From positions 1,876,001 to 1,940,000 of the forward strand of contig NZ_CP084930.1 in assembly GCF_023822065.1 (NCBI RefSeq): a stretch of 64,000 nucleotides of DNA, in the 5' to 3' direction. Position 1 is the first letter of the stretch. Each line of letters opens with the position of its first letter. This DNA comes from Sphingomonas morindae (lineage in GTDB: Bacteria; Pseudomonadota; Alphaproteobacteria; Sphingomonadales; Sphingomonadaceae). Of the stretch, positions 15,100 to 21,379 are shown piece after piece. Position numbers and translations under genes: made by a program. The notes beneath the pieces are model-generated. The model searched no databases, was not told the DNA's origin, and saw only the letters and a program-made list of their open reading frames with translations.

Positions 15100-15118
15100 C
15101 GTTGAACGAGGCTCAACG
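15100..15118. promoter_or_regulatory. LysR-box-like palindrome, site 1 of 3
   Basis: CGTTGAACGAGGCTCAACG: outer arms match, with one mismatch in the inner pair. It lies in the 104-base gap upstream of the aldo/keto reductase start at 15049. It shares length and half-site with the palindromes at 20340 and 21361. Binding by the island's LysR protein is inferred. Confidence 0.5.
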
Positions 15119-15153
15119 CCGTCATGTTCGTCTTTCGACTGCCGGATGCGACG

Positions 15154-15603
15154 TCACTGCCGTTCCCAGGTCACCGACCAATGCTCGGCGGGCGAGACCG
15201 GCCCAATGACAAGGCGTCGCCCGCGGATGTGCCAGGTTCGCGGCAGGTCGCGGCCGACGAGCGCGGGCATGTTCGCGCCCTCGACATGGTGGACGAGGCG
15301 ATGGGTGCGCACGTCCGCCGTGAAGCGGCCGAACGACGCCTCGTAGCCGTCGTGGACATAGTCGGTGTTCACATGCGCGTCGGGATAGGAGACCTGGACC
15401 GACATGCGGCCATCGGCGGTGTAGATCAGGCTGCCCGTGAGATCGGTATGGCGCACCGTCCTGCCTCCCGCATCCGTCTCCTCGATCTGCACAAGATGCC
15501 ATGTGCCGACCAGCGGCGCGGGCGGGGCCGCGGCGGCAGGGACGGCTGCCGCCGCAATCGCCAGGGCGGCCGCCGCAAGAGGGACGGCATGGGACGGCTT
15601 CAT
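15154..15603 (-). CDS. Secreted lipocalin-like domain protein
   Basis: A 149-residue protein with a clear signal peptide: MKPSHAVPLAAAALAIAAAA followed by VPAAAAPPAP, cleavage probably near residue 26. The mature part matches the lipocalin-like family, beginning LVGTWHLVQIEETDAGG. It continues with DLTGSLIYTADGRMSVQV and HHVEGANMPALVGRDLPRTW. Such proteins form a small periplasmic beta-barrel expected to bind a hydrophobic ligand; no enzyme motif is seen. The start has AGGAG upstream. It lies 25 bases after the reductase stop at 15629, consistent with an operon. Confidence 0.85.
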   Translation of the reverse strand: MKPSHAVPLAAAALAIAAAAVPAAAAPPAPLVGTWHLVQIEETDAGGRTVRHTDLTGSLIYTADGRMSVQVSYPDAHVNTDYVHDGYEASFGRFTADVRTHRLVHHVEGANMPALVGRDLPRTWHIRGRRLVIGPVSPAEHWSVTWERQ

Positions 15604-15628
15604 CGCAGATCTCCTGTTCGCGCCACAG

Positions 15629-16624
15629 TCAGCGCCCGACGAGCTTCTGATGCGCCTCGGGATAGCGGGCGCCGACGATGGCGATCCGCGACGACACCTC
15701 CTCCAGCGCCGCCACGTCCTCGGGCGACAGGGCGATGGTCGCGGCGCCGAGATTCTCCTCGAGTCGATCGAGCCTGGTTGTACCGGGGATCGGCACGATC
15801 CACGGCCGCTTGGCGAGCAGCCAGCCGAGCGCGATCTGCGCGGGCGTCGCGTCGCGCTCGGCGGCGAAGCGCTTGACGAGATCGACCAACGCCTGATTGG
15901 CCTTGCGGTTCTCTTCCGCGAAGCGCGGCACGCTGGCGCGGAAGTCGTCGGCGCCGAACCTCGTATTGGCGTCGATCGCGCCGGTGAGGAAGCCCTTGCC
16001 GAGCGGGCTGAACGGCACGAGGCCGATGCCCAGCTCCTCCAGCAGGGGGATGATCGTATCCTCGGGCTCGCGCCACCACAGCGAATATTCGCTCTGGAGC
16101 GCGGTCACCGGCTGGACGGCGTGCGCGCGGCGGATCGTGTCGGCGCCCGCCTCGGATAGGCCGAAATGCTTGACCTTGCCGGCCGCGATTAGATCCTTCA
16201 CCGCGCCGGCCACGTCCTCGATTCCCACCTCGGGATCGACCCGGTGCTGATAGTAGAGGTCGATCGCATCAACCCGCAGGCGCTTGAGCGACCCTTCCAC
16301 CACCTCCTTGATATGCTCGGGCCGGCTGTCGAGCGCGCTCCAGCGGTCGGTGTCGCCGGGCGCTTTCGTCCAGCCGAACTTGGTGGCGATCACCACCTCG
16401 CCCCGGAACGGCGCCAGCGCCTCACCGACCAGCTCTTCGTTGGCGAACGGGCCGTAGACCTCGGCGGTGTCGAAGAAGGTGACGCCGCGCTCCACGCCCG
16501 CGCGGATCAGCGCGATCATCTCGCTCTTGTCCTTGGGCGGCCCGTAGGACCAGCTCATGCCCATGCAGCCGACGCCGAAGGCGGAGACTTGGAGGCCGTC
16601 GCGGCCCAGCGTGCGCGTTTCCAT
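15629..16624 (-). CDS. Aldo/keto reductase
   Basis: A 331-residue aldo/keto reductase closely related to the one at 7898-8893. Shared stretches include [38 protein letters not shown] and [15 protein letters not shown], which carry the catalytic Asp, Tyr, Lys and His. The C-terminal motif [19 protein letters not shown] binds the NADPH phosphate side in this family. The start has GGGAGA upstream. It is the sixth gene after the LysR gene in the minus-strand cluster. A physiological role in reducing reactive aldehydes or quinone-like compounds is likely but not shown. Confidence 0.92.
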
Positions 16625-16639
16625 GCTTATGTCTCCCGG

Positions 16640-19487: not shown

Positions 19488-20258
19488 TCAGTGCGCGGTG
19501 AAGCCGCCGTCGACCGGCAACGCGACGCCGACGACGAAGCTGGCGGCGGGGCTGCACAGCCACAGCACGGCGGCGGCGACCTCGTCGGCGGTGCCGAGGC
19601 GGCCGATCGGCTGGTCGCGGTTGATCTCGGCCATCGCCTCGGCCTGGCCCTGCAGCATGTCCTGCACCATCGGCGTGTCGATCACGCCCGGGCAGATCGC
19701 GTTGATGCGGATGCCGCGCGGGGCATATTCGACGCCCGCGCTCCTCGTCATGCCGATCACCGCATGCTTGCTGCCGTGATAGGCGGCGCGCTGGGGCAGG
19801 CCGACGAGGCCGCCGAGCGAGGAATTGTTGACGATCGCGCCCGAGCCCTGGCCGCGCATGACGCGCAGCTCATGCTTCATCGCCGCCCACACCCCGCGCT
19901 GGTTGATCGCGACGACACGCTCGAATTCCTCGATCGGCTCGTCGGCGGCGTCCGAGGGCGGCACCTGGATGCCGGCGTTGTTGAACGCCATGTCCAGCCG
20001 GCCATAGTCCGTCACCGCCCGATCGACCGCCGCCGCGACCTGCCCCTCGTCGGCGACATCGCAGGCGATCGCGACGGCCGTGCCGCCCGCCTGGACGATG
20101 CGTTCGGCTTCGGCCGCGGCGCGTTCGCCGTCCAGATCTGCGAGGACGACGGCCGCACCTGCCTCGGCGAACTGCCGCGCGGCGGCGAGGCCCATGCCCA
20201 TCGCCGCACCGGTCACCAGTGCGACCTGGCCCGTAAAGTCATATGTCGGATTTGGCAT
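19488..20258 (-). CDS. SDR-family oxidoreductase
   Basis: A 256-residue classical short-chain dehydrogenase/reductase, first structural gene after the LysR regulator on the minus strand. Motifs: VTGAAMGMGLAAAR (nucleotide binding, near residue 13), DLDG for NAD(H) preference, FNNAGIQ, catalytic Ser in VNNSSLGG, and Tyr-x3-Lys in AAYHGSKHAV. It ends ALPVDGGFTAH. The start at 20258 (MPNPTYDFTG) is favoured over an upstream ATG because GGAGG lies 6-10 bases before it. A 19-bp palindrome (20340-20358) lies 82 bases upstream and may be its operator. Confidence 0.93.
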   Translation of the reverse strand: MPNPTYDFTGQVALVTGAAMGMGLAAARQFAEAGAAVVLADLDGERAAAEAERIVQAGGTAVAIACDVADEGQVAAAVDRAVTDYGRLDMAFNNAGIQVPPSDAADEPIEEFERVVAINQRGVWAAMKHELRVMRGQGSGAIVNNSSLGGLVGLPQRAAYHGSKHAVIGMTRSAGVEYAPRGIRINAICPGVIDTPMVQDMLQGQAEAMAEINRDQPIGRLGTADEVAAAVLWLCSPAASFVVGVALPVDGGFTAH

Positions 20259-20339
20259 GTGTGTGTCCTCCATCAACCGCAAGAGCGATCAGATCGGACG
20301 ACGGTTGCGTGTTCAGAAGATGGGTTCGACTTGATGCAG

Positions 20340-20358
20340 TGATGAAGTTTCTTCATCA
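20340..20358. promoter_or_regulatory. LysR-box-like palindrome, site 2 of 3
   Basis: TGATGAAGTTTCTTCATCA is a perfect 7-base-arm inverted repeat with a 5-base spacer, extended by one more pair (G 20339, C 20359). It overlaps the stop codon of the LysR gene and lies upstream of the SDR start. It could also act as a weak hairpin, but no T-run follows on either side. Confidence 0.55.
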
Positions 20359-21270
20359 CAGTCCCAGAGGTCGTCTCTCCCGGATCAGATCGATGAACAG
20401 CCGGAGCGCGGCGGGAAGCTGACGTCGGCTCGGATAATAGATGTGATAGCCGGGGCCGGTGACAGCGTGGTCGAGCAGCACCGGGGAGAGCAGCCCCGCC
20501 TCGATCCATGGGCGGAGCGCGGCGTCGACGCCGTAGGTGAGGCCGGCGCCCGCGACCGCCATCGCGATCATCGCCTGGCTGTGATCGGCAACGATGTTGC
20601 TGGGTACGGCGAGGTCGAACTCGCCGTTGGGGCCGTCGAACTCCCACCGGTAGATGCGCTCGTCGCCCAGCCGCACACCGAGGCAGCAATGGCCGGCGAG
20701 ATCCGCCGGCGCGAGCGGCGTGCCATGCTTCTCCAGATAGGCAGGCGAGGCCGCCACGATCCAGCGCAGGTCGGCCGAAAGCCGTTGCGCGATCATGTCC
20801 TCCGGCACCGTACCGCCATGTCTTATGCCGGCATCGAACCCGCCGGCGGTCACGTCCACCATGCGGTTGCTCGACACGAGGTCAACTTCGATCTCGGGAT
20901 AGCGCTCCGCGAACTCGCCCATCACGGGCGCGACCAGCAGGTGCGCCGCGTCGCCGACCACGTTCAGCCGGATGCGGCCGTTCGGGGCGTCGCGATACTG
21001 GTTGAGGGCGTCGACCGCCTCCCCGATCTGCGCGAACGGGCCCTCCAGCGACTCATGAAGCCGCTCGCCGGCGGCGGACAACATCACCGAACGGTTGGTC
21101 CGGTTCACCAGTCGCACGCCCAGGCGCTGCTCCAGCCCCTTGAGAGCATGGCTGATCGCCGAAGCGGTGACGCCAAGCTCGAGGCCGGCGAGCCGGAAGT
21201 TCCGGTGGCGCGCGATCGCGAGGAAATAAGCGAAGTCAGCAAGATCGGCGCGGTTTACCGGCGCGGTCAT
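20356..21270 (-). CDS. LysR-family transcriptional regulator of the redox island
   Basis: A 304-residue LysR-type regulator with helix-turn-helix NFRLAGLELGVTASAISHAL (about residues 24-43) and a C-terminal effector domain (VSSNRMVDVTAGGFDAGIRH, GAGLTYGVDAAL). The start at 21270 (MTAPVNRADL) is chosen over 21339 by family fit. It heads the minus-strand cluster and is divergent from the exported CMD gene at 21411. The shared intergenic region carries a perfect palindrome with a T-N11-A core, the usual LysR recognition form. It therefore probably controls both directions. The inducer is not evident. Confidence 0.92.
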   Translation of the reverse strand: MTAPVNRADLADFAYFLAIARHRNFRLAGLELGVTASAISHALKGLEQRLGVRLVNRTNRSVMLSAAGERLHESLEGPFAQIGEAVDALNQYRDAPNGRIRLNVVGDAAHLLVAPVMGEFAERYPEIEVDLVSSNRMVDVTAGGFDAGIRHGGTVPEDMIAQRLSADLRWIVAASPAYLEKHGTPLAPADLAGHCCLGVRLGDERIYRWEFDGPNGEFDLAVPSNIVADHSQAMIAMAVAGAGLTYGVDAALRPWIEAGLLSPVLLDHAVTGPGYHIYYPSRRQLPAALRLFIDLIRERRPLGL

Positions 21271-21360
21271 GATCGTCCGTCCGGGCGGACAAGCCATCGC
21301 CGGTTCGGGAACGCCGCAAACAAGCTGGTGTGAAGCCATACCACCATCCGCTCACTATGC

Positions 21361-21379
21361 CGTTGAAGTGCGTTCAACG
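21361..21379. promoter_or_regulatory. LysR-box-like palindrome, site 3 of 3
   Basis: CGTTGAAGTGCGTTCAACG is a perfect inverted repeat (7-base arms, 5-base spacer). It lies 32 bases before the CMD start at 21411 and 91 bases before the divergent LysR start at 21270. The core TGAA-N5-TTCA fits T-N11-A. It is the best candidate operator of the island. Confidence 0.6.

What the first reader, a model, noticed from the sequence alone, without database searches (positions are those of the whole stretch)
15100..21379. Three matching 19-bp palindromes mark a LysR regulon in the redox island
Seen: CGTTGAACGAGGCTCAACG (15100), TGATGAAGTTTCTTCATCA (20340) and CGTTGAAGTGCGTTCAACG (21361) share length, spacer and TGAA-N5-TTCA core (the first with one arm mismatch). 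Each lies in a gap upstream of a gene of the same island. Known: LysR proteins bind dyads of form T-N11-A, often between themselves and a divergent target; site 3 is exactly there. Inference: the LysR at 20356-21270 controls at least three promoters covering three reductases, two CMD proteins, an exporter and a cupin.
Basis: partly seen in the sequence, partly recalled or inferred. Interest (0 to 1): 0.72.

Follow-up and report, generated by a model that had tools for sequence, protein, structure and literature searches.

The report
LysR regulon sites in redox island
Three matching DNA palindromes in a cluster of detoxification-type enzyme genes are very probably the docking sites of the cluster's own LysR regulator, because the same palindrome sits beside related LysR genes in many other bacteria; it is an ordinary kind of gene control with a well-supported, newly outlined site.

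Summary
The three palindromes are at the stated coordinates and the LysR-regulon reading holds up as a prediction. In 80 loci carrying relatives of this LysR, a search that did not use the window sites gives TGA-N7-TCA as the most enriched dyad beside the LysR gene (57 of 80 loci; 66 sites, 3.5 expected). The fuller form YGWTGA-N7-TCAWCR gives 32 near-LysR sites in 29 of 80 loci; every other spacer from 0 to 15 gives 0 or 1. A matrix from relatives' sites ranks the window sites 1-3 in the window (24.4, 22.6, 20.2 bits; next 8.8). The genome has four exact matches, three of them here. Probable regulon: lysR plus 11 genes, mostly carbonyl/quinone reductases. Against: 21 of 80 relatives and a 66%-identical paralog show no such site; two congeners keep only degenerate versions; the fourth genomic match scores as well as site 3. 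Binding, direction of control and inducer are untested. New member of a known kind.

The parts
15100..15118 (.). Site 1, CGTTGAACGAGGCTCAACG, 50 bp upstream of the AKR1 start codon
20340..20358 (.). Site 2, TGATGAAGTTTCTTCATCA, overlaps the lysR stop codon, 81 bp upstream of the SDR start codon
   Evidence: same placement behind lysR and before SDR in L021 and L022
21361..21379 (.). Site 3, CGTTGAAGTGCGTTCAACG, in the divergent gap: 31 bp before CMD2, 90 bp before lysR
   Evidence: one-mismatch counterpart 33 bp before CMD2 in L018
20356..21270 (-). lysR, LysR-type regulator (HTH_1 and LysR_substrate)
   Evidence: Pfam; start ATG read by eye
14063..15049 (-). AKR1, aldo/keto reductase, probable target of site 1
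   Evidence: Pfam
15154..15603 (-). lipocalin-like protein, last gene of the run behind site 2
   Evidence: Pfam
15629..16624 (-). AKR2, aldo/keto reductase
   Evidence: Pfam
16640..17230 (-). isochorismatase-fold hydrolase
   Evidence: Pfam
17227..17796 (-). flavodoxin-fold protein, WrbA-like quinone reductase (below the WrbA cut-offs)
   Evidence: Pfam; NCBIfam (104.7 of 141, 96.2 of 132.5 bits)
17836..18696 (-). AKR3, aldo/keto reductase nearest DkgA
18738..19457 (-). CMD1, double carboxymuconolactone decarboxylase-domain protein
   Evidence: Pfam, (2 stretches)
19488..20258 (-). SDR, short-chain dehydrogenase/reductase, first gene behind site 2
   Evidence: Pfam; start ATG preceded by GGAGG
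21411..22250 (+). CMD2, double CMD-domain protein with a signal-peptide-like start, first gene behind site 3
   Evidence: Pfam; signal peptide by eye
22247..23494 (+). MFS transporter overlapping the end of CMD2
   Evidence: Pfam
23578..23985 (+). cupin
   Evidence: Pfam

Best explanation
The LysR at 20356-21270 binds the three 19-bp palindromes (YGWTGA-N7-TCAWCR, a T-N11-A box) and so controls lysR itself and three transcription units: site 3 for CMD2-MFS-cupin (and lysR), site 2 for SDR-CMD1-AKR3-WrbA-like-isochorismatase-AKR2-lipocalin, site 1 for AKR1. Shown: the sites, the regulator family, and linkage of the operator to this LysR family across genera. Inferred: binding, the operon limits, and the sense of control. 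Most likely the protein works as other LysR regulators do, changing its grip on the promoter when a small molecule enters the C-terminal domain; the gene content (four carbonyl reductases, a quinone-reductase-like flavodoxin, an exporter) suggests a reactive carbonyl, quinone or similar electrophile as signal. Distances suggest activation from site 2 (81 bp from the start codon) and a promoter-overlapping, perhaps repressing, position for site 3 at CMD2 (31 bp).
For: De novo dyad search beside 80 related lysR genes, no window sequence used: TGA-N7-TCA ranks first of 1088 three-base palindromic dyads (57 of 80 loci, 66 sites, 3.54 expected); the four- and five-base searches lead with TGAG-N5-CTCA (29 loci) and TGAGC-N3-GCTCA (20 loci). 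Strict pattern: 32 near-LysR sites in 29 of 80 loci and 8 elsewhere; other spacers 0-1 near; reversed arms 0 near. Upstream exact matches 17 of 80, about 0.8 of 80 expected from 2000 random windows. Matrix from 29 distinct relatives' sites ranks the three window sites 1-3. Positional conservation of site 3 (L018: 33 bp; window: 31 bp) and site 2 (L021, L022). Genes starting at the 40 strict sites in relatives include LysR at 17, cupin at 14, SDR at 7, AKR at 2. Own genome 4 exact matches, 3 here; chance of 3 of 4 random points within the span 3e-5 (after the fact). A LysR-type regulator with a DNase I footprint over AGTGA-N7-TCACT exists (GcdR, PMC6667623, passages).
Against: No binding or expression data. 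21 of 80 relatives have no TGA-N7-TCA within 200 bp of lysR, and the relatives closest to the window in the tree (L020, L023-L025, L027) have only the loose form. The 66%-identical paralog in the same genome has no such site nearby. Two congeners with 60%-identical LysR before SDR keep only versions with 2 and 3 mismatches. The fourth genomic match, inside an ORF read by eye as AraC-type, scores 20.3, above site 3 at 20.2, so sequence alone does not decide. The pattern is not a genome-level marker of the regulator: 113 of 199 family genomes hold it, and 4 of 10 other genomes with a LysR at 51-66% identity hold none. The swapped pattern TCAWCR-N3-YGWTGA also has 4 near-LysR sites (16 elsewhere). 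No sigma-70-type promoter was found. The strict pattern was written after seeing the window sites; only one search is free of that.
Confidence: 0.8

Rival explanations
1. The paralogous LysR at C1:3078801 (66% identical) shares or holds the regulon: both regulators read the same operator.
For: Its DNA-binding domain is close to the window protein's in the helix region and it has no operator beside its own gene.
Against: The sites cluster with the window lysR, at the places that relatives also use. Sharing would add to, not replace, the main reading.
Confidence: 0.2
2. The palindromes are MetR-type boxes (TGAAnnTnnTTCA) and belong to a methionine regulator.
For: MetR consensus as given in PMC5002191 (passage); site 2 fits it letter for letter.
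Against: Sites 1 and 3 do not fit (by eye). The operator beside related lysR genes is mostly TGAG-N5-CTCA (29 loci) rather than TGAA-N5-TTCA (8 loci). No methionine gene was recognised in the island.
Confidence: 0.03
3. Chance palindromes, or hairpins acting on RNA (terminators), with no regulator.
For: Bare palindromes of this shape are common here (19 in the window); site 2 sits at a gene end.
Against: Spacer-specific enrichment beside related lysR genes, top-3 matrix ranks, 0 of 100 shuffles with three matches. The terminator scan marks none of the three sites.
Confidence: 0.03
4. Only one or two sites are operators (for instance site 3 and site 2) and AKR1 is controlled otherwise.
For: Site 1's placement before an AKR1 gene was not seen conserved in a sister locus; L018 lacks AKR1.
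Against: Site 1 has the best matrix score of the three and lies 50 bp before a start codon.
Confidence: 0.15

Closest known systems
LysR-type transcriptional regulators with T-N11-A boxes (general)
   Same: Domain make-up, T-N11-A dyad, divergent target at site 3.
   Different: Nothing found that departs from the family.
GcdR of Pseudomonas putida (LysR family, footprint on AGTGA-N7-TCACT; PMC6667623, passages)
   Same: Same TGA-N7-TCA half-sites and spacing, in the regulator-target gap.
   Different: Outer letters differ (AG/CT against YGW/WCR); target is glutarate catabolism and the effector is glutarate. Protein similarity was not tested.
CrgA of Neisseria meningitidis (crgA/mdaB; PMC6422896, passages)
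   Same: LysR regulator of its own gene and, as recalled, of a divergent quinone reductase gene. A LysR entry of the PDB (3hhg, recalled to be CrgA) is among the nearest solved structures.
   Different: Operator letters were not compared; the regulon here has eleven further genes.
E. coli YafC
   Same: Best NCBIfam model (149.8 bits); yafC also lies next to a carbonyl reductase gene, dkgB.
   Different: Score far under the equivalog cut-off of 470; no TGA-N7-TCA in the 6-kb yafC stretch.
E. coli YqhC with yqhD-dkgA (PMC8249747, passage)
   Same: A regulator beside reductases for glyoxal-type carbonyls; AKR3 here is nearest DkgA.
   Different: YqhC is of another regulator family (AraC, recalled).

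Membership tests
LysR-type transcriptional regulators | N-terminal HTH_1 and C-terminal LysR substrate-binding domain | tested here: met
   PF00126 66.3 bits, PF03466 133 bits, both above cut-off
LysR-type transcriptional regulators | T-N11-A dyad in the gap between regulator and divergent target | tested here: met
   Site 3 (TGA-N7-TCA is T-N11-A) between lysR and CMD2; operator linked to the subfamily
LysR-type transcriptional regulators | Binding to the dyad and effector-dependent control | not testable with these tools
   Needs bench work
YafC (NF040888) | Equivalog score of 470 bits | tested here: not met
   149.8 bits
MetR box | TGAAnnTnnTTCA | tested here: not met
   Site 2 fits, sites 1 and 3 do not (by eye, consensus)
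GcdR-like operator | TGA-N7-TCA inverted repeat | tested here: met
   All three sites; GcdR protein itself not compared

The most novel reading that the evidence does not exclude
The window shows one instance of an operator-defined LysR group spread over several alphaproteobacterial orders and some gammaproteobacteria, whose common operator YGWTGAGC-N3-GCTCAWCR lets the regulon of carbonyl/quinone reductases, cupins and CMD proteins be read from sequence; the group would be a general reactive-carbonyl or quinone switch not yet named in the papers that could be searched.
Probability: 0.45. Interest if true: 0.5.

Novelty: new member of a known kind. Interest (0 to 1): 0.36.

Why it matters
It gives an uncharacterised but widespread LysR group a concrete operator, so targets in other genomes can be predicted and one binding assay would test many of them. 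The enzymes involved look like aldehyde, ketone and quinone reductases, a useful set in stress tolerance and in biocatalysis. If only ordinary, it is still a clean case of a tool-free guess from raw sequence standing up to comparative data.

Tried and rejected
TGAA-N5-TTCA as the core: 14 sites in the genome, a minority form beside relatives' lysR genes (8 loci against 29 for TGAG-N5-CTCA); replaced by YGWTGA-N7-TCAWCR.

Perfect-palindrome scan upstream of relatives only: found few sites because many lie behind lysR or are imperfect; widened.

More regulon members in the genome: the 26 one-mismatch matches (30 in all, reversed control 4). I fetched the surroundings of four of these and of the fourth exact match and read ORFs round two of the four and round the exact match. 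The exact match at C3:45759 lies inside an ORF; C1:2007580 lies inside an ORF; C1:946565 (18.5 bits) spans the end of a small ORF and was left open. In one search I scored 15 of the 30.

Genome-level link of operator number and regulator in 199 family genomes: no clear excess; 4 of 10 other carriers have none.

Congener loci: no qualifying site in the lysR-SDR gaps of L174 and L175. A second AKR2-like cluster in the own genome (L176) has no qualifying site beyond two with 2 mismatches.

Promoter scan: nothing. Structure prediction was not run; it would not have told operator choice.

Papers: ten answered searches gave no description of this operator; the library holds only part of the literature. 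Papers were seen as passages or listings, none whole.
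Full report
Observation. They pair at 7, 8 and 7 of 9 positions. Bare palindromes of this shape are common in the window (19 perfect ones), but their shared letters are rare: YGWTGA-N7-TCAWCR occurs 3 times against 0.06 expected, though this pattern was written after seeing the sites. With up to 2 mismatches, CGTTGA-N7-TCAACG is at chance (3 against 2.56).

Setting. The window is C1:1876001-1940000 of a 4.24-Mb genome in four contigs. By Pfam the island holds AKR1, a lipocalin-like protein, AKR2, an isochorismatase-fold hydrolase, a flavodoxin-fold protein, AKR3, CMD1 and SDR on the minus strand, then lysR, and divergently CMD2, an MFS transporter and a cupin. 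From SDR to the lipocalin gene the seven genes run the same way with gaps of at most 42 bp, from the coordinates; the next gap, 104 bp before AKR1, holds site 1. Site 2 lies 81 bp before SDR and overlaps the lysR stop codon; site 3 lies 31 bp before CMD2 and 90 bp before lysR.

Comparative test. One scan fetched 80 loci with LysR relatives at 56-71% identity, the best 80 of 163 confirmed. A search for palindromic dyads in 150 bp on either side of lysR, using nothing from the window, ranks TGA-N7-TCA first of 1088 three-base dyads: 66 sites in 57 of 80 loci, 3.54 expected from the rest of the loci; the longer searches lead with TGAG-N5-CTCA (29 loci) and TGAGC-N3-GCTCA (20 loci), which are the same site. 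The background there is mostly coding DNA, so the spacer control matters more: YGWTGA-Nk-TCAWCR has 32 near-LysR sites in 29 loci for k=7 and 0 or 1 for every other k from 0 to 15; reversed arms give 0; the swapped order TCAWCR-N3-YGWTGA gives 4. Exact matches upstream of lysR: 17 of 80, about 0.8 expected from 2000 random windows. The loci with strict near-LysR sites come from five or more alphaproteobacterial orders and from gammaproteobacteria; one record is titled Bacillus.

Back to the window. A matrix built from the 29 distinct relatives' sites ranks sites 1, 2 and 3 first, second and third in the window with 24.4, 22.6 and 20.2 bits; the next is 8.8. The training sites were picked with the strict pattern, so this is not fully independent. 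The family's preferred half is TGAGC/GCTCA, and site 1's right half GGCTCAACG is of that form; its 'mismatch' is a mixture of two accepted halves. Placement is conserved: the sister sequence in the tree, L018 (Sphingomonas pituitosa; support 98), has a divergent CMD2 homolog (72% identity) with a one-mismatch site 33 bp before its first ATG; L021 and L022 have a strict site 4 bp behind the lysR match and 68 bp before SDR. At the 40 strict sites in relatives the genes starting nearby match LysR at 17 sites, cupin at 14, SDR at 7, AKR3 and AKR2 at one each; 12 of 40 sites have no match to a window protein. Some of those others look, by eye only, like zinc alcohol dehydrogenases, MFS exporters and an aldehyde-oxidase iron-sulphur subunit (sequences).

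Whole genome. TGAA-N5-TTCA: 14 sites (reversed control 3). GTTGA-N7-TCAAC: 3 (control 0). Full pattern: 4 (control 0), three here and one at C3:45759 inside an ORF that I read as AraC-type (no family search was run on it). One mismatch allowed: 30 (control 4). Three of four random points falling within this span has a chance of about 3e-5 (after the fact).

Results against. 21 of 80 relatives lack even TGA-N7-TCA within 200 bp. The 66%-identical paralog at C1:3078801 has none nearby. Congeners L174 and L175, with 60%-identical LysR before SDR, have only 2- and 3-mismatch versions in that gap. The C3 match outscores site 3 slightly (20.3 against 20.2). In 199 family genomes the pattern is found in 113, mostly without this LysR, and 4 of 10 other carriers of a LysR at 51-66% identity have none. 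LysR genes at 36-43% identity have the loose dyad at 4 of 19, so the half-sites may be older than this subfamily.

Mechanism. The most likely reading is an autoregulatory LysR system: site 3 serves lysR and CMD2-MFS-cupin, site 2 the SDR run, site 1 AKR1. The gene content points to reduction of carbonyls and quinones with export; the signal is a guess. LysR proteins usually bind a recognition site about 65 bp before the transcription start (recalled); site 2 fits activation with a leader of some 20-30 bases, whereas site 3 would overlap the CMD2 promoter. No promoter was recognised.

Known relatives. The best NCBIfam model is YafC at 149.8 bits against a cut-off of 470; the E. coli yafC stretch has no TGA-N7-TCA. 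A LysR regulator of Pseudomonas putida, GcdR, protects AGTGA-N7-TCACT (PMC6667623, passages), so the half-sites and spacing have an experimental precedent. MetR's box TGAAnnTnnTTCA (PMC5002191, passage) fits site 2 alone. Ten paper searches found no description of this operator.

Verdict. It is a new member of a known kind, with an operator definition that reaches beyond this genome.

Noticed in passing
13919-13971 and 24149-24201: The redox island lies between two related 53-nt stretches (74% identical). The left one is the 3' end of a RovC/PF10074-type gene (13599-13961); the right one reads GGYRKLLQHRRQH-stop in one frame, like the tail of a second copy. This suggests cargo inserted next to such a gene.
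   Followed up: partly
26836-33175: Plasmid-like genes in the chromosome-sized contig: replication initiator RepA (PF10134), ParA and a DUF3363/relaxase protein, so the island probably rides on an integrated mobile element.
   Followed up: partly
24182-26359: A second LysR gene with a divergent MFS gene; its gap carries no match to the strict operator.
   Followed up: no
7847-8893: A further aldo/keto reductase gene outside the island; the stretch C1:1883931-1884640 overlapping it is 70% identical in DNA to AKR2; no operator match near it.
   Followed up: no
L134:6566-6584 (C1:946565): A one-mismatch operator CGTTGAGCGAGGCTCAGCA (18.5 bits) between two small ORFs; possible distant regulon member.
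   Followed up: partly
L054, L060, L076, L083 upstream of lysR: A variant of the operator of the form TGAG-N5-TTCA followed by GCA or ACA recurs about 135-255 bp upstream of lysR where an AKR1 or CMD1 gene is divergent, perhaps a clade-specific version.
   Followed up: no
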